Shown piece by piece: positions 41,610 to 58,168 of a DNA stretch of 60,751 nucleotides. The DNA is from an uncultured Eubacteriales bacterium (GTDB lineage Bacteria > Bacillota > Clostridia > Christensenellales > CAG-138). The stretch's first letter is position 1; the number at the start of each line of letters is the position of its first letter. The stretch covers positions 1 through 60,751 of the forward strand of contig CACWJZ010000003.1 in the NCBI GenBank assembly GCA_902761365.1, written 5' to 3'. The position numbers were made by a program, and so were the translations under genes. Under the pieces are notes generated by a model. The model was given only the letters and a program-made list of their open reading frames with translations. It did no database searches and was not told where the DNA came from.

Positions 41610-42581
41610 TTACGAGGTGTACGTGTTTCGTATTTCTTCCCAGGAGGGTATCATTCTGTACAGCTCATCAAAATGCGGCATTGGGAAGTCCGGCTTCCGC
41701 GCTCTCAATCTCTGAAACGCCTTGTCCAGATCCTCCATTTCCTGCGGAGCGTGACGACAGTGCTCAGTCGTGCAAAGGGCTCCGAGCCGGGTCCGCGACA
41801 TCCAGTAAATGACCAGCTTCACAAGTTGATTAGAAATGCCTGGTTCCAGGTTTTTCTCATCCCCTACCGGACGGACCGGATACCCCAGCGCCATCAGAAG
41901 ATGATAGGCGTCGCCCACCGCGTCCAGCAGAAGCTCTCTTTCCTCTTTTGTGGACTTCGTGAGATCACACCCGGTTTTGTAGCATAAGTAAACGACCGGC
42001 AGGATGAACGCCGCGTGATATTTCAGCCAGGCGTCCATATCGTCGCAATACGAAACCGACATCCTGCTGCCCGCAAAGAGGCGCTTCAGCAGAGTCTTTT
42101 CTGCGGCAGTCAACTCTGCGTGAGCTTTTCCGATGGTTAATTTGCCATCCCCGGTATGCACAGTGGTCAGCTTCCCGTTCTCACGTGTCCCGGCAGTCGA
42201 GCCAAAGCCGAACAGCACTTCTTTCGGAGAGGCTGCCGCTCGCAGGATCCGTCTCTCCATCTCTGAAACGGACAGGTTGTTGCCTACCAGCACCACGATC
42301 GAACTGTTTACAGCCGCCAGATCCTCCAATATCCGTTCCATCTGTCGGTATTGCATCACGGCAAACGCGATATCATACCGCTGCCCATCCGGCTTTTCCA
42401 AAACGCGGGGATGATCCGTCGTATCTTTCTTCTGTATGTAATGCCGGATGCGCAGACCGTCCTCCTCAAGCGCTTCTTTCCATGCTCCGCGGGCGATCAC
42501 GGTGACGTCGTTTCCACTGATCGTGAGCGCATGCACGAGCTGTCCGCCGATCACGCCGGCTCCATATACCAGCACCTTCAT
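41610..42581 (-). CDS. Ketopantoate reductase (PanE/ApbA)-like oxidoreductase
   Basis: 323 residues. The NADP-binding glycine motif is VYGAGVIGGQLVHALT at the N-terminus, and FGFGSTAG and AWLKYHAAFILPVVYL match the PanE fold, the latter containing the catalytic Lys. The Asn that follows the Lys four residues later in PanE is Ala here, and the pathway context is not pantothenate. An NADP-dependent reduction of an unknown keto acid within the cassette is the best guess. Last gene of the run, 55 bases after the previous stop. Confidence 0.8.
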   Translation of the reverse strand: MKVLVYGAGVIGGQLVHALTISGNDVTVIARGAWKEALEEDGLRIRHYIQKKDTTDHPRVLEKPDGQRYDIAFAVMQYRQMERILEDLAAVNSSIVVLVGNNLSVSEMERRILRAAASPKEVLFGFGSTAGTRENGKLTTVHTGDGKLTIGKAHAELTAAEKTLLKRLFAGSRMSVSYCDDMDAWLKYHAAFILPVVYLCYKTGCDLTKSTKEERELLLDAVGDAYHLLMALGYPVRPVGDEKNLEPGISNQLVKLVIYWMSRTRLGALCTTEHCRHAPQEMEDLDKAFQRLRARKPDFPMPHFDELYRMIPSWEEIRNTYTS

Positions 42582-42636
42582 TGTCTGTTCCCCCCATATC
42601 GCATGGCTTCTATTATCTGCTTTGCTATTCCTGCCT

Positions 42637-43131
42637 TCAAGTCAAAAGAATTGCGATCCCTGCGACGATCAGCCCGGCAACGGGGCAAACGAGAAATGTC
42701 CAGCCCAGGGCGTGTTCCGGGATCGCCAGCTTCCAAAGCCATTCCTTCCGCTCCCAGGCTTTGCAATTCTCCGCGCCCTTGATATAGGGTCTTGCCTTCG
42801 GCGGCAACCAGCAATCGAGGATCAAAAAATCGCTGACGCTTACGATCGTCATTTCCAGATACCCGGTCCAGAAAAAGTGCGAAAAGCCAAATACGCCCGC
42901 GAAAACGGCGCTGATAGCCCAATATACGAACAGCAGCAGATACAGCGGATAGAGGATCCGCTTCATCTTCTGAACTTCTTTACTGTCGACGAACGGCGCT
43001 GCCGCTTCCCTGATCTCCTTTGGGAACATGGTGCTGTATGCCTGGGGATACAGCAAAAAGCCCAGCCCCACGACTGCGTTGAAAAGCAGCGCCATGACAG
43101 CTCCGTCCAGGATCGTTCTCGGCCAGTTCAT
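42637..43131 (-). CDS. Small polytopic membrane protein, paralog family 1 (member 1)
   Basis: 164 residues, four hydrophobic segments. VSVSDFLILDCWLPPKARPY followed by IKGAENCKAW carries the shared motif of the family, Asp-x5-Asp-x2-W, a short gap and (P/K)G(T/A)E. Three relatives lie at 43875, 47707 and 48902. Function unknown, and I know no named domain. Its start overlaps the DUF6796-like gene by four bases, so they are co-translated. Confidence 0.8.
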   Translation of the reverse strand: MNWPRTILDGAVMALLFNAVVGLGFLLYPQAYSTMFPKEIREAAAPFVDSKEVQKMKRILYPLYLLLFVYWAISAVFAGVFGFSHFFWTGYLEMTIVSVSDFLILDCWLPPKARPYIKGAENCKAWERKEWLWKLAIPEHALGWTFLVCPVAGLIVAGIAILLT

Positions 43132-43859
43132 GCTGTTCTCTCCTCATTTTTCTCTTGCATGGCCTGCAGGACGAGCTTTCTGCCCCCGAGGAACATCAGC
43201 ATCCAGCCGAAGCTCTCAAACCCGGAGACGAAACCGTTGAACGGCCAGGGGATCAGCAGTTCCAGCAGATATCCGATCCCCGCTACGATTAGCGGCGAAG
43301 CCAGTATCCACGCTTTCTTCAGGGCAAACGTCCCTCTAAAGATCAGTGCGATCCAGCCGATCAGGACAGCCAGCTCGAAGGCGAAGAAGGTCGTCCAATA
43401 GGGAACGATCTGTACCATGTAGGAGCGGTTCCATAAATCCGCCGCAAGCTCCGTATTGCCCCCGGAGGCTTCGTAGATCACGTTGAAGGTATGGATCAGC
43501 GTCCCGCATGCCAGGTGGAAGTACAGGAAACACATGACCCCCAGGATCAGCCCGGCGATATAGAGCTTCAGCAGGCGACGATCCCATTTGTCTTTACACC
43601 CTGGGAGCAAAGATTTAAGAAACTCCGCAAAGGGCAGCGCGGCGACGGTATAGCAAGCCGTGCCGATCAGGCCGCCGATGTTGGACAACGCGATCCGCCA
43701 GTCGGCGATGGTCAGCCAGCCGGATGAGATCATTCCCAAGATCGCATAGCTGTCCAAAGGTTCGACGCCCATGCAGTAGTCGCCGATCATAGCCAGCAGC
43801 ATACCCGGAATGATCCAAAGCATTCTCCTGTATGTCTTTCTCAGTTCATCTGTCGTCAC
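43128..43859 (-). CDS. DUF6796-like polytopic membrane protein (member 1 of 3)
   Basis: 243 residues and seven or so hydrophobic segments. The N-terminal MIGDYCMGVEPLDSYA, the central HLACGTLIHTFNVIYEASGG and the C-terminal LIPWPFNGFVSGFESFGWM match two further genes at 56167 and 56850 in placement and motifs. I place it in the DUF6796 family by pattern. Function unknown. It overlaps neighbours on both sides (ATGA with the paralog after it; 14 bases with the frame-shifted gene's stop in the original frame). Confidence 0.8.
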   Translation of the reverse strand: MTTDELRKTYRRMLWIIPGMLLAMIGDYCMGVEPLDSYAILGMISSGWLTIADWRIALSNIGGLIGTACYTVAALPFAEFLKSLLPGCKDKWDRRLLKLYIAGLILGVMCFLYFHLACGTLIHTFNVIYEASGGNTELAADLWNRSYMVQIVPYWTTFFAFELAVLIGWIALIFRGTFALKKAWILASPLIVAGIGYLLELLIPWPFNGFVSGFESFGWMLMFLGGRKLVLQAMQEKNEERTA

Positions 43860-43874
43860 CTTGCATCCATCCTT

Positions 43875-44355
43875 TCAAAACAAGAGCACATCGATCCCGG
43901 CCACGATGGCCGCGCCAAAGAGCCAGATCAGCGTCAGGATGACGCGCTTCTTCAGCACCTGGGGCCAGGTCTGGACGAAGGGGGATGTCCTCCGTACCGG
44001 GAATGATCCAGAAGCGGCTGTGCCCGACCCAGAGCTGGTCGATCACCACCCCGTCGTACCAGTTCATGACTTCCAGAAACAACAGCGCCTGCCAATAGGC
44101 GGGCCAAAATGTGCAGATGCCGTTCCAGAGGCCGACGATCAGCACCAGCGCCGCCGCCATGACCAGAAAGAAGGGGATCATGAATCGCCTCCGCTTTCGG
44201 CTCACTTTTTCCCGGTCCATCAGTCCCAGTGCATACGCCCGTTCCTGCACGGGCTTCGGGTAGAAAAAGAGACCGTTCAGCGGGCTGCTGCCTACGGCGA
44301 TCTTGACCATCAGGGTGAACAAGGCGCAGAACAAAAGGAGCTGCAGCAGGATCAT
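43875..44355 (-). pseudogene. Small polytopic membrane protein, paralog family 1 (member 2), frameshifted
   Basis: The intact frame from 44355 encodes MILLQLLLFCALFTLMVKIA and later NWYDGVVIDQLWVGHSRFWI, IPGTEDIP, then runs into unrelated sequence (LRPDLAPGAEEARH). Dropping one base in the five-C tract at 43980-43984 (minus strand) restores IPFVQTWPQVLKKRVILTLI then WLFGAAIVAGIDVLLF and a stop at 43875, in register with the family. So the gene is either a true pseudogene or a sequencing/assembly indel. Otherwise it is family 1 (see 47707, 42637, 48902). Confidence 0.82.
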
Positions 44356-45269: not shown

Positions 45270-45298
45270 AAGCTTACCTTCCTTGTAAAAACGGGTGT

Positions 45299-45979
45299 TC
45301 AATACGTCAGTATGACCGTATAATCCATCAGCCCGTGCAGCAGCACCGGCAGCCAGATCGTCCCGGACCTCTCCTTGAAAAGCTGGAACAGGCAGCCGCC
45401 GAATACATATCCGAGGAATGTGCCAGTGAATAAAAACCTGAGCAGCACTTTGGCGCTGATCTCGCCCCAGCCCGCATCCGCGAACAAATGCAAGGCGCCG
45501 AAGAGAATGTTCGGCAGCAGATAGCGCAGCGGCCAGGAGGCATGTCGCAGAAACCAGGTGCAGGCGTCACGGATAACGAATTCCTCACCAAATCCGATGA
45601 AGACGAGGTAATAGAACAGGCTCAGCAGGATGGAGGCCTTGTCCGGCTTGACGATCAGGCCATACACGGTAAGCCCCAGGATCGCAGCGATAAGGACCGC
45701 CGCACAGATCCGCTGCCACTTTCCCTGAAGCCTGAAATATAACTCCGACGCAAACTCTTTTTTCAGCGCCAAGGCGAAAAGGATCAGCAGAGCCGCAGGG
45801 ATCAGAAATCCAAACAGGCATTGGCACAAAAAAGCTATCGGCTGCCCGGACGCAAGCCGCACGGAAATTGCCGAGCCGCTTTGAACGCTCCGGTAAACCC
45901 ATACAACGCTGATAAATTCGATCAAGCCGATCGCCAGCACGGCGAGGCACCCGAGCATGGTCTTCGTTTTCTCTTTCAT
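45299..45979 (-). CDS. CPBP family intramembrane metalloprotease
   Basis: 226 residues, about seven hydrophobic segments. Three CPBP motifs are in order: FIGFGEEFVIRDACTWFL (EExxxR), NILFGALHLFADAGWG (FxxxH) and LLHGLMDYTVIL (HxxxD). The family includes the CAAX protease-like Abi proteins and bacteriocin-immunity proteins. In a biosynthetic cassette it could mature or detoxify a peptide or protein, but the substrate is unknown. Ends 29 bases before the esterase start. Confidence 0.88.
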   Translation of the reverse strand: MKEKTKTMLGCLAVLAIGLIEFISVVWVYRSVQSGSAISVRLASGQPIAFLCQCLFGFLIPAALLILFALALKKEFASELYFRLQGKWQRICAAVLIAAILGLTVYGLIVKPDKASILLSLFYYLVFIGFGEEFVIRDACTWFLRHASWPLRYLLPNILFGALHLFADAGWGEISAKVLLRFLFTGTFLGYVFGGCLFQLFKERSGTIWLPVLLHGLMDYTVILTY

Positions 45980-45997: not shown

Positions 45998-46780
45998 TCA
46001 GCTCTCATATCCCATGCATTGGTCGATCATGTCCATCACCGGTTTTTTCCAGGTCTCGTCATAGAGCCAGACCTCGTGCTTCATGTCGAACTCGTGGATG
46101 TCAGGGTCGCGAAAATGCCGGCGGTAGCGTTTGCCGTATTTCTCGCCCATTTTCAATGCGTAGACGATATGCACCTTCGTCCCGTCCACATGGATATAGT
46201 CGTCCAGCGGCGTAACGTAGTCTGAATAAAACTGGCGGCTGATGGTCTTTGGATGGAGCGTCTTCATGTTGTCTATGAAAGCGTTGGCGAATTCCAACGA
46301 GCCATCCCCATCCCCGAGCGCGCCTTTCTTCTGCAGGTTCGCTTTGAGCTTTGCCCGTTTCTTTTCACTGGTGCAGGCGCCCGAGAGCATGGGGCCGACG
46401 ATGGCGGTCAGCAGCCGTGCGGTCAGCTTCCCGCCCTGATCCAGGTCGGAGGAACCGATGAAGCCGTGGTCGATGTGGATGCGCCTGCGCTGGATCAGCA
46501 GACCTACAAAGCTTCCGCCGAGGGAGGAGCCGTAGGCGCCGTCCACACAGCCGCCGTGTTTTTCGAGGATATAGGCCTCGATCTTTGCCGTGACGGTGAG
46601 CATATCGGTAAAAACCACCTGGGGATCGCCCTCGAAGCCGTCGTAATTGACGGCAATGACATGGTACTTTTCCGCCAGCTCATCCGCCACGTTTTTGAAA
46701 TTCAGCTGCCAGGTGCAGGCCGTGCCCGGCAGGAGCAACAGCGTCTTGCCGTCCGGCCTCCCAAACTCCGAAAACTGCAT
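45998..46780 (-). CDS. Alpha/beta hydrolase, cassette member
   Basis: 260 residues. The nucleophile elbow is CVDGAYGSSLGGSFVGLLIQ (GxSxGG), after LLLPGTACTWQLNFKNVADE (oxyanion region) and VIAVNYDGFEG. It is most like 46884-47666, which has the same length and GAYGVSMGG elbow, so the two are paralogs. Both would act on an unknown ester, amide or lactone. No signal peptide. Starts 103 bases after the paralog's stop. Confidence 0.83.
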   Translation of the reverse strand: MQFSEFGRPDGKTLLLLPGTACTWQLNFKNVADELAEKYHVIAVNYDGFEGDPQVVFTDMLTVTAKIEAYILEKHGGCVDGAYGSSLGGSFVGLLIQRRRIHIDHGFIGSSDLDQGGKLTARLLTAIVGPMLSGACTSEKKRAKLKANLQKKGALGDGDGSLEFANAFIDNMKTLHPKTISRQFYSDYVTPLDDYIHVDGTKVHIVYALKMGEKYGKRYRRHFRDPDIHEFDMKHEVWLYDETWKKPVMDMIDQCMGYES

Positions 46781-46883
46781 TCTAAGCGTCCTCCTTCCTT
46801 CGGCTTACGAGGAAGCCATGTTCGTCTGTTATGAGTTCATACTGTGCGCAGTCTTTGACGATGCAGCGTTCATCTCAGCGTTT

Positions 46884-47666
46884 CTACGCCTGTTCCGCTT
46901 CCATGAACCTCTTGACTTCCGAGAAGAACCTGGCCGGGAACATCAGCACCAGCTCCGCATGTGCCAGGCCTTTGAACTCCTTCGGAGTTGTCTGCGGATA
47001 GATCCTCCTGGTGTAGGCAAGGTCGTTCTTCCTTGCCTTCTTCTCCTCTTCCCCGTACCAGTACTCGATCTTTGTGTTGATCTTTGGGACCGGGTCCGGC
47101 ATGGAATAGTTGTTCGTGGACCAGAACACGTTATAGATCGTCTTGGAGGAGAAGTGGTCCCTCTCGAACGCAAGGATCCGCCTGTAGTGCTCTTCCGGGT
47201 CTTCCCCCTTGGGCGTCCAGCGCTCCGGTGGCATGGCCGCTTTCATGATCCAGTAATTCTTCGTTGCGAGAGAGATCGTAACCCAGTCCCACAAGGCGAT
47301 CAATCGGCAGATGATCTTCGGGTAATGGTACGGCGTGATCCCGGCGTCGATGATGGCCTTATCCACAGGGATATCCTGCGTGGCAAGGAAGCGGATCACG
47401 CTGGCGCCGCCCATGGAAACACCGTAGGCACCATCAAGACGCCGCACCCCGTGTTTTCTTAAGAACGCAGCCGCGTCTTCCACGTTTTTTTCTATCGAGA
47501 TGAAAGTCGTGCCCTGCTCATCGTGCCCGTCGGCAATAAACAGGTACACATGATAGTCCCGGGCAAGCTCCTTAGCGGAAGCCTCGAAGACCCACCAAGG
47601 CTCGGCGGCGCACTGAAACATGGCGAAGGTCTTTTCCTGTTCCGTGCCGAATTCATACACTCTCAT
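46884..47666 (-). CDS. Alpha/beta hydrolase, cassette member (paralog of 45998-46780)
   Basis: 260 residues. The elbow LDGAYGVSMGGASVIRFLAT gives the Ser nucleophile; DYHVYLFIADGHDEQGTTFI precedes it. A possible His is in AHAELVLMFPARFF. Substrate unknown. Clear similarity with the neighbour at 45998 indicates local duplication. Starts 40 bases after the small membrane protein stop. Confidence 0.83.
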   Translation of the reverse strand: MRVYEFGTEQEKTFAMFQCAAEPWWVFEASAKELARDYHVYLFIADGHDEQGTTFISIEKNVEDAAAFLRKHGVRRLDGAYGVSMGGASVIRFLATQDIPVDKAIIDAGITPYHYPKIICRLIALWDWVTISLATKNYWIMKAAMPPERWTPKGEDPEEHYRRILAFERDHFSSKTIYNVFWSTNNYSMPDPVPKINTKIEYWYGEEEKKARKNDLAYTRRIYPQTTPKEFKGLAHAELVLMFPARFFSEVKRFMEAEQA

Positions 47667-47706: not shown

Positions 47707-48198
47707 TTATCTGATGATCAGGCACATGATTCCGGAAAGCGCAGCCGATATGAATGCCATTCCGGCCGTTCCCATGATCCATTTTCTCTTTTTGTCTGTG
47801 GCTCCAATATAGGGCTTCAGATCTTCTGTCCCCGGGATGTCCCATGCCTTTGTGTGTCCGACCCAGTACCCGTCGATCAGAAACCGGTCAATGAGATTCA
47901 TGATCGACAGTATGACGAGCATCTGCCAGAAGCCCTGAAAGAAGCCTTTCGCGCCGTTGATCCCATAAACACATACCAGGACGTAAATCAGATACCCGGG
48001 TACGCAAAGCCCTTTGAACAAAAGGCTCCTCTTTCGGATCTCATCGGAAGAAGTCAATCCAAGTTTTACTGTGCGGGTCTGTACTGCCTCGCTGTACAGA
48101 TGGACCATCCCGACCGCCCCATGGCGTATGCCGATCGCGCAGACGAGATACAGAAGGAAGCCCAGTCCCAGCCCTTCAAACAACAGCTTTACCGCCAT
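47707..48198 (-). CDS. Small polytopic membrane protein, paralog family 1 (member 3)
   Basis: 163 residues, four hydrophobic segments. NLIDRFLIDGYWVGHTKAWD then IPGTEDLKPYIGAT is the best-preserved copy of the family motif (D-x5-D-x2-W, PGTED). AVGMVHLYSEAVQTRTVKLG, like GLFFYPKPVQERAYALG in the frameshifted paralog at 43875, marks the region after segment one. Function unknown. It overlaps the ATCH-like gene by ten bases. Confidence 0.82.
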   Translation of the reverse strand: MAVKLLFEGLGLGFLLYLVCAIGIRHGAVGMVHLYSEAVQTRTVKLGLTSSDEIRKRSLLFKGLCVPGYLIYVLVCVYGINGAKGFFQGFWQMLVILSIMNLIDRFLIDGYWVGHTKAWDIPGTEDLKPYIGATDKKRKWIMGTAGMAFISAALSGIMCLIIR

Positions 48199-48905
48199 AC
48201 TCGATCCCCCTTACGCCGGCTGACCAAAAATCCGTCTTCATCCGTGACGGTCGTATACTCCGAGGCGACGGGATCATGATTTCCCACCACCAGGTAATCG
48301 CAGCGGTCGCTGTTGCCGCAGGTTCCGCAGCGGATCAGCGTCCCATGTATCCTGGAAATGCCGAAGAAATCGCTGTTGCATAACAAGGGCAGAACGGAAA
48401 GGAGGTTATGGCTTTTCGCAAACTCCGCATTCGGGCATTGCGTGAAGGAATACCGTGCGGCATGATGCTCTTTGTCATATGGTTCGTCCACATTGATGAA
48501 GCCGGCAGGATACTTGGCGGCGTCTCTTCTGTCGCGGTCGCCGCTTCTGCGAAACACCTTATCGATCAGCCACATATCAAAAGAACGGTTCAGATCGAAC
48601 ACCTTTCCGAGCTTGATAAACGGCTCCATAAAGAGCTTCTGTACGAAATCCTGCAGTTCCGCCTGAGGCGGACGATCCGGCAGCGAGGGAATCAATGAGA
48701 AGATCAGCAGTCCGCCGTAGATCGCATAGGCATGTCCGTTCTTTTTTCCGCCGTAATCCGGCAGATCGTTCAAATACGCAGCATAGTCGGCCTCTGTCTT
48801 TCTCCAGATATCGTCGGCCTGCTCATTTCCGTAGCGTTCTTTGAGCCAGGCTTTGACTTTGCCACAATACGGAAGCTCGTCGATGATCAGGTGGTTTTGG
48901 ATCAT
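48189..48905 (-). CDS. ATCH-like hydrolase 1 (L-2-amino-thiazoline-4-carboxylic acid hydrolase family)
   Basis: 238 residues from the ATG at 48905, which overlaps the stop of the upstream membrane protein gene by four bases; the open frame continues far upstream but is off-family. ARYSFTQCPNAEFAKSHNLL, LPLLCNSDFFGISRIHGT and RCGTCGNSDRCDYLVVGNHD form the ATCH C-terminal pattern with conserved Cys and Asp. The family hydrolyses the thiazoline ring of L-ATC to S-carbamoyl-cysteine in Pseudomonas; whether this protein does so is unknown. Two further copies lie at 53627 and 54283. Confidence 0.8.
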   Translation of the reverse strand: MIQNHLIIDELPYCGKVKAWLKERYGNEQADDIWRKTEADYAAYLNDLPDYGGKKNGHAYAIYGGLLIFSLIPSLPDRPPQAELQDFVQKLFMEPFIKLGKVFDLNRSFDMWLIDKVFRRSGDRDRRDAAKYPAGFINVDEPYDKEHHAARYSFTQCPNAEFAKSHNLLSVLPLLCNSDFFGISRIHGTLIRCGTCGNSDRCDYLVVGNHDPVASEYTTVTDEDGFLVSRRKGDRVWR

Positions 48906-49405
48906 AGCTTCCCTCCGATCCACAAGGAAAGGAACGCCATCAAGGCCGCGACAAAGGGAAAAACGGCGAGGCGGATCAGCTGCTCCTTCCGGTTGAAGCC
49001 GAAGGAACGATACCCGGCGCAGCCCTCCGTCTCCGGATAGTAACGCTGGAAGAAGTGCGATTTCGTCAGCAGCAGCCAGTCCAGGCACACGACGTCGAAG
49101 GCCTTCCAGAGATACAGCATCACAGCGAAGCGGAGGAACAGCTGCCAGAAGGTGAAGCCGCTCAGTACCCCGTTCCAGCCGCCGTGTACGAAAGCGCCGA
49201 CCATCAAAACGAGACTCAGGATCGCCAGCAGCCAGCCCATGGCATGTGCGCCGGGAAAGCGCTCCGGATGGTCCACGGCGGCGGCCTGGATGTCCTTGGG
49301 CGCGGTGGTAAAGAACCGTCTGTCCTGGATCAGCGCCACGGCGGCGTAGAGCAACAGGCATACGGCCAATATGAAGATAAGGGTCAAAATCAGCGTCAGC
49401 AACAT
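48902..49405 (-). CDS. Small polytopic membrane protein, paralog family 1 (member 4)
   Basis: 167 residues from the ATG at 49405 (MLLTLILTLIFILAVCLLLY), with a GTGAGG upstream; the frame is open to 49444. Four or five hydrophobic segments. WKAFDVVCLDWLLLTKSHFF then QRYYPETEGCAGYRSF is the family motif in its most diverged form (PETEG for PGTED). It comes seven bases before the methyltransferase stop and overlaps ATCH 1. Function unknown. Confidence 0.8.
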   Translation of the reverse strand: MLLTLILTLIFILAVCLLLYAAVALIQDRRFFTTAPKDIQAAAVDHPERFPGAHAMGWLLAILSLVLMVGAFVHGGWNGVLSGFTFWQLFLRFAVMLYLWKAFDVVCLDWLLLTKSHFFQRYYPETEGCAGYRSFGFNRKEQLIRLAVFPFVAALMAFLSLWIGGKL

Positions 49406-49412: not shown

Positions 49413-50198
49413 TCACTTTCTGCCCACCAGCAGGGCGGAACCATACAGCTCCATCCAGATCGCTTCCCGTTTGGTGATCCAGGTGCCGTCCGCGGTATCG
49501 ATCAGACGGACGTCCTCGTAACCCATATCCTTCAGCTTTCGGACGAAAGCTTCCATGTCACCGTATTTGGATTTCGAGAAGATGTCGTGGAGAACGAAGA
49601 CGCCGCCCTTCTTCAGCACCCGCAGGGTCTCCAATAGATACTCTTGCCGATGGCCGGGGATGTTGTGGTAGACGTAGTTGCTCACCACGGCGTCGAAGCT
49701 CTCGTCAGGGAAGTCGAGATGCACGGCGTCGCCCCTTAGGAAGGACACGTTTTTCACCCCCTCCACCCGGGCATTTCGCTCGCACATAGGCTTGTTGAAG
49801 GAGGCGTACTCCTTGCCCCAGCGGTCCACTCCCACGAAGGTCGCGGCGGGGTTCCGCTTGGCGCAGGCAATGGTCAGCGCGCCGCTGCCGCAGCCCACGT
49901 CCAGGCCTTTGCCGCCATCGGGAAGATGCACATATTCCGCAACGCCTTCGATGATCTGTTTGGACATCTGCCGCTTGCCGTCGTAGGAAAAGGCGCGGTA
50001 CAGCAGAATCATCCAGACTGTGATACCCAGCCCGATGACCGTCAGGACCAGGAACACGACCGACAGCACGGTCTTCCATGTGCCGGAGACCATGCCCGTC
50101 AGCCCGAACAGGACGAACAGCATGAAAAACAGCCCGGTCAGACCCGCCGCCGTCCGGATCATACCCTTCGGCATCCAGTTTTTGTAATCCGGCTTCAT
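49413..50198 (-). CDS. Membrane-anchored class I SAM methyltransferase
   Basis: 261 residues. Two hydrophobic segments near the N-terminus (LTGLFFMLFVLFGLTGMVSG and the next) precede a Rossmann domain with motif I GLDVGCGSGALTIACAK, VGVDRWG, then LRGDAVHLDFPDESFDAVVS. It is like UbiE/Methyltransf_11 enzymes but with a membrane anchor. The methyl acceptor is unknown; a lipophilic substrate would fit the anchor. Overlaps the MBL-fold gene by four bases. Confidence 0.87.
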   Translation of the reverse strand: MKPDYKNWMPKGMIRTAAGLTGLFFMLFVLFGLTGMVSGTWKTVLSVVFLVLTVIGLGITVWMILLYRAFSYDGKRQMSKQIIEGVAEYVHLPDGGKGLDVGCGSGALTIACAKRNPAATFVGVDRWGKEYASFNKPMCERNARVEGVKNVSFLRGDAVHLDFPDESFDAVVSNYVYHNIPGHRQEYLLETLRVLKKGGVFVLHDIFSKSKYGDMEAFVRKLKDMGYEDVRLIDTADGTWITKREAIWMELYGSALLVGRK

Positions 50199-51061
50199 CT
50201 CGTCTTCACCTTTCCGAGGAGCATCGTCCTTGCGCTCTCCTCCGTATCGTCGTCCTCCTCATAGCCGTCGTAGGTTGCGGTCGGATCGACATATTTCTTT
50301 GTAAACGGTTTGCACAGCTCCGTCCGATGGGCGAAGGCGAAATCAAGGTCGTCCGTCCAGCCGGTGTGGCCCGTGATGATCTTCAGAGGTCCGTTCCTGG
50401 CACGGAGATTCTTCTCCAGCTGCTCCAGGGATTTCACCGAAAGCTTGTTGTCCTCGGCCAGGGTGGCGATAAAGCTGTAGCCGCCGTCCGCGCCGAACCA
50501 GATGGTGTCGCCGGTGAACAGGTATTCGTCGTCGACGAGGTAGACCATGTGCCCCCAAGTGTGGCCGGGGACCAGCAGGCACTCGATGCGAATGCCATCG
50601 ATGTCCAGCACCTGGCCGTTTTTCAACAGCTCCCGTTTATTGTTGGTTTTGACCATGGGCAGCTTATACAGGCCATGGAACACCTTCCGCCGTGTCTCGC
50701 CGGTGAGATACCGGTTTTCGATCTCGCCGATATAGACCGTGGCGTCCCGGAACAGCTGTTCGCTGTCCGTCTCCAAAGCACCCACATGGTCCGTGTCCTG
50801 GTGGGTGATCAGGATGTGCCGGATAGCCGCCGGGTCGATGTCCAGCCAGCCCATCTTCTCCCGGAGCCGGGCGTAGTTGTACCCGGCGTCGATCATGATG
50901 GTGGCTCCGTTCTTCGTATAGAAGAAGATGTTGGCCACCCACTCCCGTACGCAGACCACACGCTCGTCGATGCGGCCCGTGTTCAGGGGTTTGAAGATGG
51001 CTTTGCCGCGAAACAGGGCGCTCATGGACTTCTTCTGATGCTCCGAATCCTTTCTTGCCAT
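50195..51061 (-). CDS. Metallo-beta-lactamase fold hydrolase
   Basis: 288 residues. The metal-site loop is HILITHQDTDHVGALE: the usual HxHxDH reads HxDxDH here. VPGHTWGHMVYLVDDEYLFT with GDTIW, and IITGHTGWTDD supply further ligands. Cytoplasmic, with possible thioester, lactone or phosphodiester hydrolase role. The HxDxDH variant suggests an altered metal site or a different metal. Flanked by two methyltransferases, one overlapping. Confidence 0.87.
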   Translation of the reverse strand: MARKDSEHQKKSMSALFRGKAIFKPLNTGRIDERVVCVREWVANIFFYTKNGATIMIDAGYNYARLREKMGWLDIDPAAIRHILITHQDTDHVGALETDSEQLFRDATVYIGEIENRYLTGETRRKVFHGLYKLPMVKTNNKRELLKNGQVLDIDGIRIECLLVPGHTWGHMVYLVDDEYLFTGDTIWFGADGGYSFIATLAEDNKLSVKSLEQLEKNLRARNGPLKIITGHTGWTDDLDFAFAHRTELCKPFTKKYVDPTATYDGYEEDDDTEESARTMLLGKVKTR

Positions 51062-51070: not shown

Positions 51071-51751
51071 TCACTTTCTGCAGCGGAAGATGCCCATGCC
51101 CTCCACGGAGCTGACGGTCACGTCCTCGTACATGGATGCAAGGCGCGCCCGGAGGGTCTGTTCCGTCTCAAAGGGCGGGGTAAAGAAGCCTTTGGGCACA
51201 TATAGGTGTTCGATGAACCAGTCCGTACGCCGGCAGCCCTCCTGGATGTAGAAGCAGCCGCAGAAGGTTCCTCCCTTCTTGAGGACGCGGAAGGTCTCCC
51301 GATAGGCCGCATCCTTGTCCGGGAAGGCATGGAAGCCGTTCAGGGAGAGGACGATATCGAAGGTCTCATCGTTGAAGGGCAGGGCCCCCACGTCCCCCTG
51401 CCGGAAGGTCACGTTGTTGAGCCCGGCGGCTTTGGCCCGCTTCTCGGCCGCGGCCATCATATCCGCCGAGTAATCGAGGCAGGTGATCTCTGCGTTGGGC
51501 AGGTCCTTGTAGACCGGCATGGTCAGCACGCCCGTGCCCACAGGCACCTCCAGGAGCTTCCCGGAGAAATCCTCCGGCACGCCGGACAGAGCCCTGGTCA
51601 GGTATTCGAGGTTCTTCTCCCCGTTCATATTCCACACCAGGCGGCAGATGGCCTTGCCCGGCAGGGTGGAATAGGTCATCATCCCGTCATAGAAGGTCGC
51701 GCTACCGCCAAGCTGCTTGTATGCTCCTTTGATCTGTTCCTTTCTTGTCAT
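51071..51751 (-). CDS. Class I SAM-dependent methyltransferase (UbiE/Methyltransf_11 type)
   Basis: 226 residues from the ATG at 51751 (MTRKEQIKGAYKQLGGSATF), nine bases after a GGAG that lies in the end of the upstream gene; another ATG 15 bases earlier overlaps that gene. Motif I is LLEVPVGTGVLTMPVYKDLP, motif II ITCLDYSADMM, and FRQGDVGALPFNDETFDIVL with LNGFHAF the later motifs. Gly-poor motif I (VPVGTG) is typical of some SAM enzymes. Substrate unknown. Confidence 0.87.
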   Translation of the reverse strand: MTRKEQIKGAYKQLGGSATFYDGMMTYSTLPGKAICRLVWNMNGEKNLEYLTRALSGVPEDFSGKLLEVPVGTGVLTMPVYKDLPNAEITCLDYSADMMAAAEKRAKAAGLNNVTFRQGDVGALPFNDETFDIVLSLNGFHAFPDKDAAYRETFRVLKKGGTFCGCFYIQEGCRRTDWFIEHLYVPKGFFTPPFETEQTLRARLASMYEDVTVSSVEGMGIFRCRK

Positions 51752-52599: not shown

Positions 52600-53379
52600 T
52601 TATCCCAGCGCCACGTCCAGCGCCATCATCAGACTGAAGCCCAGGGCGAAGGCCACCACGCCCACGTTGGAATGTTCCCCCGCCGACATCTCGGGGATCA
52701 GCTCCTCCACCACCACGTAGAGCATAGCTCCCGCCGCGAAGGACAAAAGATAGGGCATGGCCGGGACCACCAGCCCCGCCACGATCACCGTCAGCCCGCT
52801 GAAGACAGGCTCCACCGCCCCGGAGAGAACGCCGAGCCAGAAGGCCTTGGGCTTGCTCTTACCCTCGGCGTACAGGGGCATGGAGATGATGGCCCCCTCG
52901 GGGAAGTTCTGGATGGCGATACCCAAAGCGAGTGCCAGCGCTCCGCCTGCCGTGATGTTGGCCAAGCCGCTGACCAGCCCCGCGTATACCACGCCCACCG
53001 CCATGCCTTCCGGGATGTTGTGGAGGGTCACGGCGAGGACCAGCATGATGGTCCTGGACAGCCTGCTTTTCGGTCCCTCCGCCTGATCGATGCTCCGGTG
53101 CAAATGAGGGATGACATGGTCAAGGAGCAGCAAAAACAGCACGCCCAGCCAGAAACCGATGAAGGCCGGGAGGAAGGCCCACCGTCCCAGGGCGGCGGAC
53201 TGGTCCATGGCGGGCACGATCAGGCTCCAGATGGACGCCGCCACCATGACCCCTGCCGCAAAGCCTGTCAGTGCCCGCTGCACGCCCAGCTTCAGGTCCT
53301 TTTTGAGGAAGAACACGCAGGCCGCGCCAAGGCCCGTGCCCAGGAAGGGGATCAGCAGCCCCCAGAATACCGTGCTCAT
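52600..53379 (-). CDS. ZIP family divalent metal transporter
   Basis: 259 residues, eight hydrophobic segments. TLHNIPEGMAVGVVYAGLVS (HNIPEG of segment four) and LGIAIQNFPEGAIISMPLYA (QNFPEG of segment five) are the ZIP metal-binding pair. GufA-subfamily type. It moves Zn2+ or a related ion into the cytoplasm. Its position inside the cassette, overlapping an HMA protein by four bases, hints that a metal is needed for the pathway or is carried by its product. Confidence 0.92.
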   Translation of the reverse strand: MSTVFWGLLIPFLGTGLGAACVFFLKKDLKLGVQRALTGFAAGVMVAASIWSLIVPAMDQSAALGRWAFLPAFIGFWLGVLFLLLLDHVIPHLHRSIDQAEGPKSRLSRTIMLVLAVTLHNIPEGMAVGVVYAGLVSGLANITAGGALALALGIAIQNFPEGAIISMPLYAEGKSKPKAFWLGVLSGAVEPVFSGLTVIVAGLVVPAMPYLLSFAAGAMLYVVVEELIPEMSAGEHSNVGVVAFALGFSLMMALDVALG

Positions 53380-53630
53380 CTCCAGCCGAACCAGCCTTTC
53401 TTCTCACAGGGGGCGGAGTCCGCGCCCAGGCAGGTGTAACCCGTGGCGTCGATGGCGGCTTTCAGGGCGTCTATGTCTACGGCTTCCTCCGTCAGAAAGG
53501 TCGCCTCCCCCTTGCTCCGGGAGGCGCTGACCTTCTTAGCGAAGGGTACCGCCTTGCGGACAGCCTCACAGATATGGGCTTCGCACATCCCGCACATCAT
53601 GCCCTCGATCTTCAATGTGGTTTTGATCAT
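53376..53630 (-). CDS. Heavy-metal-associated (HMA) domain protein
   Basis: 84 residues from the ATG at 53630, which overlaps the ATCH-2 stop (ATGA); two more codons upstream are possible. TLKIEGMMCGMCEAHICEAV has the HMA CxxC (CGMC), then ATGYTCLGADSAPC with further Cys, ending KKGWFGWR. A soluble metallochaperone of CopZ type for Cu+, Zn2+ or similar. It precedes and overlaps the ZIP gene. Confidence 0.9.
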   Translation of the reverse strand: MIKTTLKIEGMMCGMCEAHICEAVRKAVPFAKKVSASRSKGEATFLTEEAVDIDALKAAIDATGYTCLGADSAPCEKKGWFGWR

Positions 53631-54271: not shown

Positions 54272-54282
54272 ACCTGCCTCCC

Positions 54283-54915: not shown

Positions 54916-54925
54916 ATATATCCCT

Positions 54926-55549
54926 TCACTTTCTCGCCAGCACGGTGATCCATGGCTCCGACGGATGATGATCTGTCTGAACCTCGGAGAATCCTGCTGC
55001 CTTCAATACCGATGTGAGTTGTTCCTCGGTATAACACCTCATACCGTCAATAATCTTTTCAAACTTGAGTCCCGTCTCGTCCATGCCGTCGGATTCATTA
55101 CAGATCATGAACGTCCCGCCGGGCTTTAGGACGCGACAGACTTCGGCAAAGCACTTTTCCAACCCCGGCCAGAAATAGACCGTCTCAAATGCGGTGATCA
55201 TATCAAAGGCTTCGTCCGCAAAAGGCAGAGACGCCACGTTGCCCTGCAGGACAGCGCACCTGCCTGCCGCGATAAGGTCCTTGTTGATCTCCTTCGCTTT
55301 CTCTACGGAAACCTCAGAATAGTCCATCGCCGTCAGCTTTGCCTGCGGATACCGTTTCAACAGTTCCGCAGCGTTTCTGCCGCCGCCGCAGCCGAGCTCG
55401 GCAATGCATGTGGCCGTTATCCCGTCAAGATGCAGCATGCCCCAGTCGGCCAGCTTTGCGTGACCTCCGTTCATGGTGCCGACCATCAGCTTCCCAAGAA
55501 ACCCCTGCGGTTTTCGTGTTTGTGATACGAATTTTTGAAACAATCCCAT
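54926..55549 (-). CDS. Class I SAM-dependent methyltransferase
   Basis: 207 residues. Motif I ATCIAELGCGGGRNAAELLK, then KLTAMDYSEVSVEKAKEINK, LQGNVASLPFADEAFDMITA and CRVLKPGGTFMICNESDG are canonical Methyltransf_11 motifs. Substrate unknown. It lies between ATCH 3 and another methyltransferase with gaps of 10 and 15 bases. The N-terminal 30 residues (FQKFVSQTRKPQGFLGKLMV) are basic and may contact a membrane or nucleic acid, which is only a guess. Confidence 0.88.
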   Translation of the reverse strand: MGLFQKFVSQTRKPQGFLGKLMVGTMNGGHAKLADWGMLHLDGITATCIAELGCGGGRNAAELLKRYPQAKLTAMDYSEVSVEKAKEINKDLIAAGRCAVLQGNVASLPFADEAFDMITAFETVYFWPGLEKCFAEVCRVLKPGGTFMICNESDGMDETGLKFEKIIDGMRCYTEEQLTSVLKAAGFSEVQTDHHPSEPWITVLARK

Positions 55550-55564
55550 TTCCGTTCAGCCCTC

Positions 55565-56170
55565 TCAAGCCTTTCTTTCGCATTCCGTGTACATCATGGC
55601 GATCCTGGCCGCCATCTCCCGGCTGAACGTGACACGCCAGCCGTGGCGCTCCAGAAATTCCAGGTACTCCCGGGCTGACCACTGATGCTCGAACCGGACC
55701 CCCGCCAGTCGCAGGATGCCGGACCATATCCGGCTTTTCAGCGTTCCCCTGTGTTCCACGAAGTTGGGCGCAATCAGCATCCCATCGGGCCGCAGCACCC
55801 GGTCGATCTCCCGCAGCACCCGCTCCGGATCAGGGACGATGTGCAGGGCGTTGGCGATCAGCACCGCGTCAAAGGAATCGTCCCCATAGGGCAAGGCCAT
55901 GGCGTCGGCTACCTCGAAGGTGAGGTTGTCGGGGCGATCGCCCTTCTTCGCCTGGGCGATCATGCCGTCGGAATAGTCGGTAGCGATCATCCGCTTTGAC
56001 GCCGGCGCCACGTGTTTGGCCAGCAGCCCAGGCCCCGTGGCAAGCTCCAAAACTTCCTTACCCCGGATCACCTCCGGGATACGTTCATACATGAAGTCGT
56101 ATATCTGCTGATCCGCCTGCATGGCCCGCTTGTAGATGGGCGCATACAGGTCCCAGGTCCGTTTTCTCAT
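55565..56170 (-). CDS. Class I SAM-dependent methyltransferase (UbiE/phosphatidylethanolamine N-MT-like)
   Basis: 201 residues from the ATG at 56170, which overlaps the DUF6796-like stop by four bases. VLELATGPGLLAKHVAPASK is motif I, MIATDYSDGMIAQAKKG motif II, and FEVADAMALPYGDDSFDAVL and ANALHIVPDPERVLREIDRV the rest. The pattern resembles UbiE and bacterial phospholipid N-methyltransferases. Substrate unknown. Confidence 0.87.
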   Translation of the reverse strand: MRKRTWDLYAPIYKRAMQADQQIYDFMYERIPEVIRGKEVLELATGPGLLAKHVAPASKRMIATDYSDGMIAQAKKGDRPDNLTFEVADAMALPYGDDSFDAVLIANALHIVPDPERVLREIDRVLRPDGMLIAPNFVEHRGTLKSRIWSGILRLAGVRFEHQWSAREYLEFLERHGWRVTFSREMAARIAMMYTECERKA

Positions 56171-56853
56171 TGGCTGACCCTCCTTGAGGCCAACAGCAGC
56201 CCTCCCATCATCCACAGGTTCCCGATGCTGATCCAACCCGTGGCCAGAGCGTTGGTGAGGCCGAAATCTCCGATCAGCTTCATCAGCGCCGCAAAGAGAA
56301 GGCCGAACAGCACCGAAAACACCCTGCACCGCCTGGGCAGGGGCGTATGGCCCATTCTGAACGCTCTGATCTGGGTGATGGCCGCCAGGAGGAAGAAAAC
56401 AGCGAAGATGATCGTGGCGGGCAGCAGGAACCAGCTGATGAACCGTCCTGTTTCCTGCAACGCCGTGGCGGGGTCATTTGCATAAGAGCGTTTCAGCAGA
56501 TACACCGCCATGCAACAGGGCACGTGGACACCGCAGCCGCCGAAGGCGAGACACCCGATGATCCCGGCGCGGTAAGCGTGGGCGTCCTGCTCGGAATAGG
56601 GCTGTATCATCCGATAGACGGCGAACCAGCACAGACACTCGATAGGGATACCGACAAGTCCCAGCAAAGCCGAAGCAAAGATCCTGCCGTCCGACACGGT
56701 CAGATACCGGCTGAACAGGGCCGGGACCTCCGTCATGGCCGGGTCGGTCACGCCCCAACCCAGGAGCATATCCCCCGCCAGGACCATCAACGAGGCGAAG
56801 ACGCCCATCTTCAGCAGGTGCCGTATCCGCGGCCAGTCCAGCGTTTCGTTCAT
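56167..56853 (-). CDS. DUF6796-like polytopic membrane protein (member 2 of 3)
   Basis: 228 residues, six or seven hydrophobic segments. SLMVLAGDMLLGWGVTD at the N-terminus, GIIGCLAFGGCGVHVPCCMA in the middle and TNALATGWISIGNLWMMGGL at the end align with 43128 and 56850. Cys-rich middle (CGVHVPCC) is notable in a membrane helix. Function unknown. Overlaps both neighbours. Confidence 0.78.
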   Translation of the reverse strand: MNETLDWPRIRHLLKMGVFASLMVLAGDMLLGWGVTDPAMTEVPALFSRYLTVSDGRIFASALLGLVGIPIECLCWFAVYRMIQPYSEQDAHAYRAGIIGCLAFGGCGVHVPCCMAVYLLKRSYANDPATALQETGRFISWFLLPATIIFAVFFLLAAITQIRAFRMGHTPLPRRCRVFSVLFGLLFAALMKLIGDFGLTNALATGWISIGNLWMMGGLLLASRRVSQ

Positions 56854-57593
56854 TCCAATGCCTCCGCGTTTCTCAATTCTCCCGCCTTATCCATCTCCCG
56901 CAGCAGGATCAGGCCAAGGATCAGTACGAGGGCATGGCCGAAGGATTCAGTGCCGTGGTCCAGCTGGTTGACCGGCCAGGGAAGCAAGCCAAGAAGGTTG
57001 CCGACGATCCCCGGCAGGGCCATGGGGTTGCACAGAGTGGCCAGGATCCTTGCCCCTGTGCCTTTCAGCGGAATGATCCGCTTCCAGACCATAAAAATCA
57101 TAACGACCGTCAGCAGCACGTCGCACAGCAGATAGGCGATGAGCATAGGCGCGGCGTTGGCGTAGAATACGCGGTTAGCGATGTCCGCCGCGTTTTGCAT
57201 ATCCCCATAGCTTTGATAGATGTATTTGAAGATCAGCGCCACGGTCATGAACATGGCGTGGACGTAGGCCCAGGCAACTGTCCCTGTGACATAGGCGACA
57301 CGGAACAGCTTCACCCACTTCCGATCTCCTGCTTCTGTGACGCGGATCTTCAGCAGGCCGTACATGCGGTGGAAGCCCATATAGTACAGCAATGTGCCGA
57401 CAAAACCGCAGAGGATACTGGCCACCATGCGCCAGGTGCCCATCTCCAAATAGGCGATTCGCACCATGAAGCCGACGTTCTCCGTGGTCTGTCCCCTGCC
57501 GGTGGCGGCGAACAGAAAGTCGCCGATCACATACAGCAGGCATCCGACGATGCCGACGATCAGCAGCCGCTTCGATCTCTCCTTCTCGTTCAT
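56850..57593 (-). CDS. DUF6796-like polytopic membrane protein (member 3 of 3)
   Basis: 247 residues from the ATG at 57593, overlapping the DUF3793 stop by four bases. CLLYVIGDFLFAATGRGQTT, AWAYVHAMFMTVALIFKYIY and LLPWPVNQLDHGTESFGHAL give the shared family pattern. Function unknown. The three copies bracket the cassette (first gene pair and third-last gene), consistent with their belonging to it. Confidence 0.8.
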   Translation of the reverse strand: MNEKERSKRLLIVGIVGCLLYVIGDFLFAATGRGQTTENVGFMVRIAYLEMGTWRMVASILCGFVGTLLYYMGFHRMYGLLKIRVTEAGDRKWVKLFRVAYVTGTVAWAYVHAMFMTVALIFKYIYQSYGDMQNAADIANRVFYANAAPMLIAYLLCDVLLTVVMIFMVWKRIIPLKGTGARILATLCNPMALPGIVGNLLGLLPWPVNQLDHGTESFGHALVLILGLILLREMDKAGELRNAEALE

Positions 57594-58168
57594 ACCGTTT
57601 CCTCTTTTCTGCACGTCCTGCCGGGCACGGTCAGCCGATCCAACGTCCGCCCATTTTTCCAGGCCCGGTAGTAGGCGTCGATGCACTTTTTGTACCGGGC
57701 GAAGGTCTTTTGCGCCGCATCCGCATCCCCGTATACCTTCCAGAATCCGGTGCACTTGCAGTCCGCTTCCCGGTGTTCCAAAAAGCCGGTCACGTCCTCC
57801 GGCGGATAGCCTAAGAACAGGCCGATCTCGTGGGGGAACTCCTGGCTCTCCTTCAAGCGCTCGATCAGGCAAGCTACGCAGCGGGAGGGTGTCTCGGTGC
57901 AGTATCCCCGCTCCCGCAGCAAGGCGCAGGCGTCGCCGTTCTCGAGATCCTTTTGCAGCCGGGCCGGGCGGTACACGTAGATGAGAGCGCTGTCATCCCC
58001 AAAGCGCAGCGGAATGATCCTGAGGCCCTTGGGGGACAAGACCGTGTTCCAGTGCCGCACGTCCGAGCGCATCTCCTCCTGCGTGCGATAGGAGCAGCGG
58101 AACAGATTCCCGGTCTTGATCCCCGCCAGCGTGGGCGAGCAATGGCGAATGATGGTCTCTTCCGACAT
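57590..58168 (-). CDS. DUF3793 family protein
   Basis: 192 residues, five or so Cys in the C-terminal two-thirds. LAGIKTGNLFRCSYRTQEEM, LSPKGLRIIPLRFGDDSALI and GDACALLRERGYCTETPSRC with LFLGYPPEDVTGFLEHREAD are the DUF3793 pattern common in clostridia, where it often lies near iron or flavodoxin genes. Function unknown. It is the first gene of the 24-gene run; GGAAAGGAG precedes its ATG. It is next to feoB here but separated from it by a hairpin. Confidence 0.85.
   Translation of the reverse strand: MSEETIIRHCSPTLAGIKTGNLFRCSYRTQEEMRSDVRHWNTVLSPKGLRIIPLRFGDDSALIYVYRPARLQKDLENGDACALLRERGYCTETPSRCVACLIERLKESQEFPHEIGLFLGYPPEDVTGFLEHREADCKCTGFWKVYGDADAAQKTFARYKKCIDAYYRAWKNGRTLDRLTVPGRTCRKEETV

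What the first reader, a model, noticed from the sequence alone, without database searches (positions are those of the whole stretch)
41610..58168. A 24-gene minus-strand cassette of ATCH-like hydrolases, methyltransferases and paralogous membrane proteins: candidate new biosynthetic system
Seen: from 58168 down to 41610 all genes run one way with overlaps (ATGA) or short gaps, the largest 103 bases. The set is three ATCH-family proteins, five SAM methyltransferases, three alpha/beta hydrolases, a PanE-like reductase, an MBL-fold hydrolase, a CPBP protease, ZIP and HMA metal proteins, DUF3793 and seven membrane proteins in two families. Downstream lie an ECF S component and ABC pair. Known: ATCH opens a thiazoline ring, TcmP-type enzymes methylate acids, and exporter-fold ABC pairs can carry siderophores (YbtPQ). 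Inferred: these genes make, modify, move or degrade a small molecule, perhaps a sulfur- or metal-binding one. I know of no described system with this list. No NRPS, PKS or precursor peptide is visible, so the scaffold source is unknown.
Basis: partly seen in the sequence, partly recalled or inferred. Interest (0 to 1): 0.85.

Follow-up and report, generated by a model that had tools for sequence, protein, structure and literature searches.

The report
Iron-regulated mosaic gene cassette of gut bacteria
A run of 24 genes of unknown purpose in a gut or rumen bacterium looks like part of its iron-starvation response: related genes recur in changing order in many gut microbes behind the same iron-type control site, and probably help the cell obtain iron by processing a small molecule.

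Summary
The 24-gene array is real and the family calls mostly hold. Its molecule is unknown, but the context points to iron. A palindrome, GTTAG-N6-CTAAC, lies between DtxR-type iron repressors and FeoA-FeoA in relatives that lack the cassette. In 80 loci fetched by one cassette protein it occurs 103 times against 0.27 expected (0 for six other spacers and the reversed pattern); 100 copies lie within 1 kb upstream of a cassette or iron-transport gene. The window's only copy precedes the Trep_Strep/ABC operon, after a hairpin that ends the array; the array follows FeoB, and a near relative shows box, FeoA-FeoA-FeoB and cassette genes in one piece. Members recur in Clostridia (including Faecalibacterium prausnitzii) and Erysipelotrichia, mostly on one strand, in shuffled order. 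Against one relative, 19 array genes are under purifying selection while dS runs from 0.02 to 2. The 'ATCH' proteins resemble the H-NOX/V4R/TRAPP ligand-binding fold, so the thiazoline-hydrolase label is weak. Best reading: an iron-starvation cassette acting on an imported iron-binding small molecule. Rivals: biosynthesis of an unknown metallophore, or iron-sparing remodelling. The papers searched do not describe it.

The parts
58582..60688 (-). FeoB, cut by the contig end and interrupted (60287-60688 and 58582-60447 in two frames)
   Evidence: FeoB_N in the first piece; Gate, FeoB_Cyto, FeoB_C in the second; about 68 bases fewer than G003. Contigs C15 and C55 overlap the window end by 41 and 99 exact bases inside FeoB
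58272..58496 (-). FeoB-associated Cys-rich membrane protein
   Evidence: PF12669
57590..58168 (-). g01 DUF3793
   Evidence: PF12672 E 1.1e-57; 17 of 103 boxes in 80 loci have DUF3793 as nearest labelled gene
56850..57593 (-). g02 DUF6796 membrane protein
   Evidence: PF20599
56167..56853 (-). g03 DUF6796 membrane protein
   Evidence: PF20599
55565..56170 (-). g04 SAM methyltransferase
   Evidence: PF08241
54926..55549 (-). g05 SAM methyltransferase
   Evidence: PF08241/PF13649
54283..54915 (-). g06 ATCH-family protein
   Evidence: PF14196
53627..54271 (-). g07 core ATCH-family protein, H-NOX/V4R/TRAPP-like fold
   Evidence: PF14196; AF2 pLDDT 95.8; Foldseek/VIA
53376..53630 (-). g08 HMA metal-binding protein
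   Evidence: PF00403; CxxC conserved
52600..53379 (-). g09 ZIP metal transporter
   Evidence: PF02535
51756..52589 (-). g10 LCM/TcmP-type carboxyl methyltransferase
   Evidence: PF04072 E 2.1e-10
51071..51751 (-). g11 SAM methyltransferase
   Evidence: PF13649; in 36 of 67 loci of >=10 kb
50195..51061 (-). g12 MBL-fold hydrolase
   Evidence: PF00753; H87 D89 D91 H92 H167 D185 H232 conserved (>=95%) in 27 copies
49413..50198 (-). g13 SAM methyltransferase with an N-terminal hydrophobic region
   Evidence: PF08241; membrane region by eye
48902..49405 (-). g14 small membrane protein (mem2 family)
   Evidence: no Pfam; aligned with the family
48189..48905 (-). g15 ATCH-family protein
   Evidence: PF14196 E 1.4e-6
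47707..48198 (-). g16 small membrane protein (mem2 family)
   Evidence: no Pfam; hhalign; AF2 pLDDT 95.7, helical
46884..47666 (-). g17 alpha/beta hydrolase
   Evidence: below Pfam cut-off
46781..46883 (-). remnant of a decayed ATCH gene (C-terminal end only)
   Evidence: translation, compared by eye with the end of g15
45998..46780 (-). g18 alpha/beta hydrolase
   Evidence: below Pfam cut-off
45299..45979 (-). g19 CPBP-family membrane protein
   Evidence: PF02517
44352..45269 (-). g20 Abhydrolase_3
   Evidence: PF07859; S148 D246 H277 conserved (>=95%) in 15 copies, numbered from the 45269 start
43846..44355 (-). g21 small membrane protein (mem2 family), C-terminal part in another frame than in G010
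43128..43859 (-). g22 DUF6796 membrane protein (GTG start)
   Evidence: PF20599
42637..43131 (-). g23 small membrane protein (mem2 family)
   Evidence: no Pfam
41610..42581 (-). g24 PanE/ApbA-like reductase
   Evidence: PF02558
41560..41612 (-). terminator-like hairpin after g24
   Evidence: 7-bp G+C-rich stem then ATTTT; -14.3 kcal/mol, z -3.8; not among the sites listed by the scan
41538..41553 (.). GTTAG-N6-CTAAC palindrome, proposed DtxR-type iron operator
   Evidence: only copy in the window, expected 0.01; no further copy with one mismatch
40910..41509 (-). Trep_Strep (ECF S-type) membrane protein
   Evidence: PF09605
37393..40910 (-). pair of exporter-fold ABC proteins (39120-40910, 37393-39123)
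   Evidence: PF00664+PF00005
33933..37007 (-). SBP, FecCD and ABC ATPase: iron-complex-type importer
   Evidence: PF01497, PF01032; PF00005
31487..33923 (-). CGGC protein, second SBP, CbiK, small ORF
   Evidence: PF08821 and PF06180; PF01497, no family for the small ORF

Best explanation
The array is an iron-starvation cassette. A DtxR-type repressor loaded with Fe(II) should bind GTTAG-N6-CTAAC at the promoter of FeoA-FeoA-FeoB. When iron runs short the repressor leaves, and the Feo genes plus the cassette behind them are transcribed, as is the separate Trep_Strep/ABC/SBP-FecCD operon that starts at 41509. FeoB and ZIP bring in free metal; the ECF/ABC and SBP/FecCD systems bring in an iron complex. 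The cassette enzymes (alpha/beta hydrolases, MBL hydrolase, PanE-like reductase, five methyltransferases) then dismantle or chemically disarm the chelator so that it gives up its iron and does not bind it again. The V4R/H-NOX-like ATCH proteins would bind the ligand or metal. The changing gene set in different strains would match the changing chelators in the gut and rumen. Well supported (about 0.85): a conserved, selected, recombining cassette linked to an iron-type operator and ferrous-iron uptake genes. Inferred: that DtxR binds the box; that box and window array share a transcript (FeoA lies on another contig); any substrate. The dismantling step is my best guess (about 0.4).
For: Box upstream of both the core ATCH operon and FeoA in near relatives. 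Own genome: 6 sites at 5 places in 2.3 Mb - two exporter-fold ABC operons, two DtxR/FeoA regions and a second ATCH-HMA-ZIP-LCM-MT operon. 80 named loci: 103 boxes against 0.27 expected; 50 of 67 loci of >=10 kb and 3 of 13 shorter ones; 100 of 103 within 1 kb upstream of a labelled gene. Spacers of 3, 4, 5, 7, 8 and 9 and the reversed pattern: 0 copies in the same loci. 20 stretches around boxes from 15 relatives without ATCH hits: 12 have FeoA next to the box, 10 a DtxR-type gene; the regulators match Fe_dep_repress and Fe_dep_repr_C. G003 shows box, FeoA, FeoA, FeoB, Cys-rich, DUF3793, DUF6796, ATCH, ATCH, HMA, ZIP in one contig. Cassette homologues on one strand: 432 against 19. dN/dS 0.05-0.25 in 21 pairs, 19 array genes and 2 downstream. 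Catalytic residues conserved in MBL and g20. Transporters nearby.
Against: No expression data under iron limitation. No box lies between FeoB and g24, so iron control of the window array rests on read-through from FeoA, whose contig is ambiguous. The window's FeoB is interrupted, by mutation or by an assembly fault near the contig end. 27 of 80 loci show no exact box, 17 of them 10 kb or longer. In 4 of the 20 box stretches nothing recognised lay beside the box. In F. prausnitzii A2-165 co-expression data an ATCH-named STRING cluster (7 of 14 genes) falls in a different module from a FeoA cluster (PMC9674144). No enzyme was matched to a known siderophore esterase or reductase. ZIP and HMA could mean zinc or another metal. 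Five methyltransferases are many for a purely degradative role.
Confidence: 0.45

Rival explanations
1. Biosynthesis of a metallophore without NRPS, PKS or NIS synthetase: the SAM-dependent enzymes (one or more perhaps transferring an aminocarboxypropyl rather than a methyl group), PanE-like reductase and hydrolases build and tailor a small chelator that the ABC/ECF systems take back up.
For: Iron-type operator; five SAM enzymes and a PanE-like reductase; a gene with a SAM-synthetase N-terminal domain inside the cassette of G010; gene content varies by strain as in diversified natural products.
Against: No recurrent family that looks like a scaffold enzyme or exporter among the 36 families (read by eye, not all profiled). 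No Condensation or IucA/C domain in the 69%-complete genome (both rang in control genomes). The Staph_opine_DH search was negative without a positive control. PKS domains were not searched.
Confidence: 0.27
2. Iron-sparing or envelope remodelling: the membrane proteins, CPBP and methyltransferases change a lipid, quinone or cofactor when iron is short, as flavodoxin replaces ferredoxin.
For: Seven membrane proteins in two families and one methyltransferase with a hydrophobic N-terminus; flavodoxin and a PEMT-like protein in some cassette loci; NCBIfam's nearest models for two methyltransferases include UbiE/MenG types, far below cut-offs.
Against: Membership and order vary so much that a fixed housekeeping pathway is unlikely (132 distinct ordered adjacencies among 341).
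Confidence: 0.13
3. Tetrapyrrole (haem or dietary chlorophyll) handling: the V4R/H-NOX-like proteins bind a porphyrin, hydrolases and methyltransferases edit its side chains, and CbiK nearby moves the metal.
For: H-NOX are among the best fold matches; CbiK and an iron-complex-type importer lie downstream; tolI of the tolyporphin cluster is annotated as ATCH (PMC8401325, passage seen).
Confidence: 0.1
4. Loose accretion: unrelated genes collected behind a strong iron promoter in a recombination-prone spot, with no common pathway.
For: Great variation in order; decayed ATCH pieces; dS from 0.02 to 1.97 within one array; an integrase-bearing element nearby in G010.
Against: The same families return in many record taxa; purifying selection on all genes tested; LCM copies away from the ATCH locus sit behind the box in 6 of 7 cases.
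Confidence: 0.05

Closest known systems
DtxR/IdeR-type ferrous-iron regulons (FeoAB with a divergent DtxR-family gene)
   Same: DtxR-family gene, palindromic operator, FeoA-FeoA-FeoB
   Different: The array of methyltransferases, hydrolases, ATCH and two membrane families is not part of any such regulon that I know or found; the classical DtxR box has another spacing (recalled)
YbtPQ-type siderophore import loci
   Same: Exporter-fold ABC pair near iron-complex SBP/FecCD; AraC gene and FecCD-like matches in the F. prausnitzii locus
   Different: Trep_Strep S component present; no yersiniabactin-type synthesis genes seen
Opine-type metallophores (staphylopine family)
   Same: Small gene set without NRPS, SAM-derived chemistry and a Rossmann dehydrogenase are conceivable here
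   Different: No Staph_opine_DH match (uncontrolled); PanE-like protein instead; no nicotianamine-synthase test made
V4R / H-NOX / TRAPP ligand-binding superfamily
   Same: Fold of g07; Cys and Asp conserved; PF14196 already linked to HNOB and V4R by sequence (PMC5847659, passage)
   Different: ATCH sequences match only PF14196 over cut-off among the families shown; ligand unknown
L-2-amino-thiazoline-4-carboxylate hydrolase (AtcB, name recalled)
   Same: Pfam family name PF14196
   Different: No activity or substrate was tested; no neighbour gene of that pathway was looked for

Membership tests
DtxR-type iron regulon | DtxR-family repressor encoded near the operator | tested here: met
   Fe_dep_repress/Fe_dep_repr_C in L028 and L138, both contigs of this genome; DtxR-type gene beside the box in 10 of 20 relatives' stretches. 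The window itself holds no DtxR gene that I saw.
DtxR-type iron regulon | Operator upstream of ferrous-iron uptake genes | tested here: met
   FeoA beside the box in 12 of 20 stretches
DtxR-type iron regulon | Operator at the window array's own promoter | tested here: inconclusive
   None inside g01-g24; FeoA promoter is on another contig, two candidates, both with box
DtxR-type iron regulon | Iron-dependent binding and derepression | not testable with these tools
   Needs protein and RNA work
Siderophore/metallophore biosynthetic cluster | Scaffold-forming enzyme (NRPS condensation or NIS synthetase) | tested here: not met
   own genome only, 69% complete; both searches rang in control genomes. 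PKS not searched
Siderophore/metallophore biosynthetic cluster | Opine dehydrogenase | tested here: inconclusive
   nothing rang anywhere, controls included
ATC hydrolase (enzyme) | Pfam PF14196 over cut-off | tested here: met
   g06, g07, g15
ATC hydrolase (enzyme) | Thiazoline-ring hydrolase activity | not testable with these tools
   None
H-NOX/V4R/TRAPP fold superfamily | Fold match | tested here: inconclusive
H-NOX/V4R/TRAPP fold superfamily | Haem or zinc site | not tested
   C155, C174, D177 invariant in 90 of 90; R191, T194, G198, C202, D203 in >=90%; geometry not examined

The most novel reading that the evidence does not exclude
Gut and rumen Clostridia, including Faecalibacterium, share a previously undescribed and combinatorially shuffled iron-acquisition chemistry: a freely recombining deck of V4R-like binding proteins, methyltransferases, hydrolases and small membrane proteins under one ferrous-iron operator, which either makes a new class of metallophore without NRPS/NIS enzymes or strips iron from chelators by modifying them.
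Probability: 0.5. Interest if true: 0.88.

Novelty: new variant of a known kind. Interest (0 to 1): 0.72.

Why it matters
Iron competition shapes the gut, yet to my knowledge the strict anaerobes there are usually credited with only Feo and importers. A widespread cassette of enzymes behind their ferrous-iron operator would point to an unknown iron chemistry in major commensals, give testable functions to DUF6796, DUF3793 and ATCH-family proteins, and show an operon evolving by gene-by-gene exchange.

Tried and rejected

Rows dropped and limits of counts: one search dropped matches covering under 40% of a query; one search used only matches of >=40% identity and 50% coverage, and counts presence in the 67 of 80 loci of >=10 kb. 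One search left out L073. In one search five array genes were not tested: g04, g08 and g09 (largely or wholly missing in G010), g15 (split between two fetched stretches) and g21 (frame). My FeoB query (u02) was translated straight through the interrupted gene, so most of it was in a wrong frame; FeoB counts from it are unreliable, and no conclusion rests on them (FeoA, the FeoB2 query and one search were used). Only 80 of 419 relatives found were kept by the tool. The 20 box stretches were chosen by me from the part's list that was printed. The LCM linkage count (20 of 23) rests on matching identities. L166 and L167 proved to be the L123 and L111 loci again, so I count 7 off-locus copies.


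Full report
Observation. The window is one whole contig (60,751 bases) of a 69%-complete genome. Between 58168 and 41610 there are 24 genes on the minus strand with gaps of -14 to +103 bases. The membrane proteins fall into DUF6796 (three) and a family without a Pfam model (four), whose two subfamilies hhalign joins. The array lies between FeoB plus a FeoB-associated Cys-rich protein on one side and Trep_Strep, an exporter-fold ABC pair, SBP, FecCD and an ABC ATPase on the other, followed by CGGC, a second SBP and CbiK. The FeoB reading frame is interrupted: FeoB_N lies in one frame, Gate, FeoB_Cyto and FeoB_C in another, and about 68 bases present in G003 are missing near the contig end. Mutation or assembly fault cannot be told apart.

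Conservation. DUF6796 occurs in 8 and ATCH in 18 of 101 genomes searched, the own genome included. One same-genus genome, G010, carries the array in the same order up to the ABC pair at 79-99% identity per protein, but lacks HMA, ZIP and most of g04. It has extra genes: FeoA and a second FeoB, two more ATCH, an alpha/beta-hydrolase-like and two SRPBCC-like genes (by eye; one weak Polyketide_cyc2 match), a TetR-type gene and a gene with a SAM-synthetase N-terminal domain. Of the 24 array genes 19 could be tested and have dN/dS of 0.07-0.25 (two downstream genes 0.05 and 0.17), but dS runs from 0.023 (g22) to 1.97 (g10) along the array. Genes have therefore been exchanged one by one while staying under selection. 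A second, smaller operon (ATCH-HMA-ZIP-LCM-MT-ATCH) lies on contig C55 of the same genome. It is complete in two further same-genus genomes (G009, G005) and incomplete or split over contigs in two (G004, G002). In L028, L032, L033 and L034 a second DtxR-type gene (43-47% identical to the Feo-linked one) lies divergent from this operon, with one or two boxes between.

Spread. A profile of the core ATCH protein found 419 relatives in named genomes; 80 loci were kept. By record titles they come mostly from rumen and gut Clostridia and Erysipelotrichia (75 of 80 Bacillota), and include an F. prausnitzii isolate and a complete Lachnospiraceae genome. In the 67 loci of at least 10 kb the window's families recur: g11 in 36, g10 in 33, MBL in 26, g05 in 25, HMA in 22, ZIP in 19 and DUF6796 in 19. 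Across the 80 loci 432 matches lie on the core gene's strand and 19 opposite. Order varies: 132 distinct ordered neighbour pairs among 341. Three of the 67 loci hold the core gene alone by this measure. Distances between loci correlate for some gene pairs (g11-g12 0.63) and not for others (g07-g13 0.00, g07-g09 0.05); paralogues may add to the latter.

The operator. Reading upstream regions of the core operon and of FeoA in relatives showed the same palindrome, GTTAG-N6-CTAAC, next to a -10-like sequence (by eye). The window has one copy, 41538-41553, where 0.01 is expected. It lies between a terminator-like hairpin that follows g24 and Trep_Strep. The genome has 6 copies at 5 places: upstream of Trep_Strep/ABC in the window, of a second ABC pair (two copies), at two DtxR/FeoA regions, and of the second ATCH operon. 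Among 101 genomes 80 have at least one copy; there are 266 copies against 120 for the reversed control (summed), so isolated copies in any one genome may be chance. In 20 stretches around boxes from 15 relatives without ATCH hits, FeoA lies beside the box in 12 and a DtxR-type gene in 10; four show nothing recognised beside it. In the 80 cassette loci there are 103 copies in 1.23 Mb where a first-order model expects 0.27, and 0 copies with spacers of 3, 4, 5, 7, 8 or 9 bases or of the reversed pattern. They occur in 50 of 67 long and 3 of 13 short loci, and 100 of 103 lie within 1 kb upstream of a labelled gene, most often DUF3793 (17) and core ATCH (13). Of seven LCM copies outside the ATCH loci, six have the box upstream of the gene or its operon.

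Linking window and box. The contig ends inside FeoB. Contig C15 ends in box-FeoA-FeoA-start of FeoB and overlaps it by 41 exact bases; contig C55, which also carries DtxR-box-FeoA-FeoA, overlaps it by 99. Which one joins is not settled, but both carry the box. G003 shows the arrangement in one piece, from box through FeoA-FeoA-FeoB to DUF3793, DUF6796, two ATCH, HMA and ZIP. No box, even with one mismatch, lies inside g01-g24.

Enzymes. The MBL ligands, the g20 triad, the HMA CxxC and ZIP metal residues (motifs recalled) are conserved in 95% or more of the copies aligned, so active enzymes are likely. The profile searches matched none to a named siderophore enzyme. No Condensation or IucA/C domain was found in the genome, and the opine-dehydrogenase search had no positive control.

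Reading. The iron link is strong. The common pathway is likely. The chemistry is open. I favour uptake and dismantling of an iron chelator, because importers and hydrolases surround or fill the array and no scaffold enzyme or exporter was seen to recur (by eye). Biosynthesis of a new metallophore is the nearest rival. A result against tight co-regulation is the F. prausnitzii A2-165 co-expression table, where an ATCH-named cluster and a FeoA cluster fall in different modules (PMC9674144, section read); the parts that I read do not describe an iron treatment.

Limits. The relatives are mostly metagenome assemblies with binning errors; homologues were called by similarity to window proteins; promoter use was not measured; completeness is 69%. 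Absence from print refers only to the searches listed.

Noticed in passing
window 46781-46883 and 31078-31224 (minus strand): Two C-terminal remnants of decayed ATCH genes, one inside the array and one beyond CbiK: signs of gene turnover.
   Followed up: partly
window 60287-60688 and 58582-60447 (minus strand): FeoB is split over two frames, with about 68 bases fewer than in G003 near the contig end; mutation or assembly fault.
   Followed up: partly
window 43846-44355: g21 reads into another frame near its C-terminus; the G010 copy continues in the family's frame. Mutation or assembly error cannot be told apart.
   Followed up: partly
L023:7013-10653 and L138:3-1765: Integrase (PF00589 in L023) with ParB-, MobC- and excisionase-like genes (by eye) near the cassette in G010, and similar ParB-, MobC- and excisionase-like genes on contig C15 of the window's genome near DtxR/FeoA: a possible mobilizable element as carrier.
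   Followed up: partly
L023:13485-14264: A gene with a SAM-synthetase N-terminal domain stands where most of g04 is missing in G010's cassette.
   Followed up: partly
L026:3300-3400: In G003 g04 and g05 are missing between DUF6796 and ATCH, and only the first codons of g04 seem to remain, joined to g06 (by eye).
   Followed up: no
L089:12834-13094, L071:1236-3326, L099:2-2327: DUF6110 and a P-type ATPase (for L089 and L071; L099 by eye) recur in cassette loci (13 and 11 loci); the metal is unknown.
   Followed up: no
L137:3057-6709: A second exporter-fold ABC pair (by eye) in the window's genome with two boxes directly upstream, next to a glutamine synthetase gene.
   Followed up: partly
L114:4777-4974: Only the C-terminal end of a ZIP gene seems to remain at the head of the F. 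prausnitzii cassette, just before the box at 5106 (by eye).
   Followed up: no
L028:6625-6972, L032:13671-13904, L033:8356-8703, L034:7642-7986: A second DtxR-type gene, 43-47% identical to the Feo-linked one, stands divergent from the core ATCH operon with boxes between: perhaps a dedicated regulator.
   Followed up: partly
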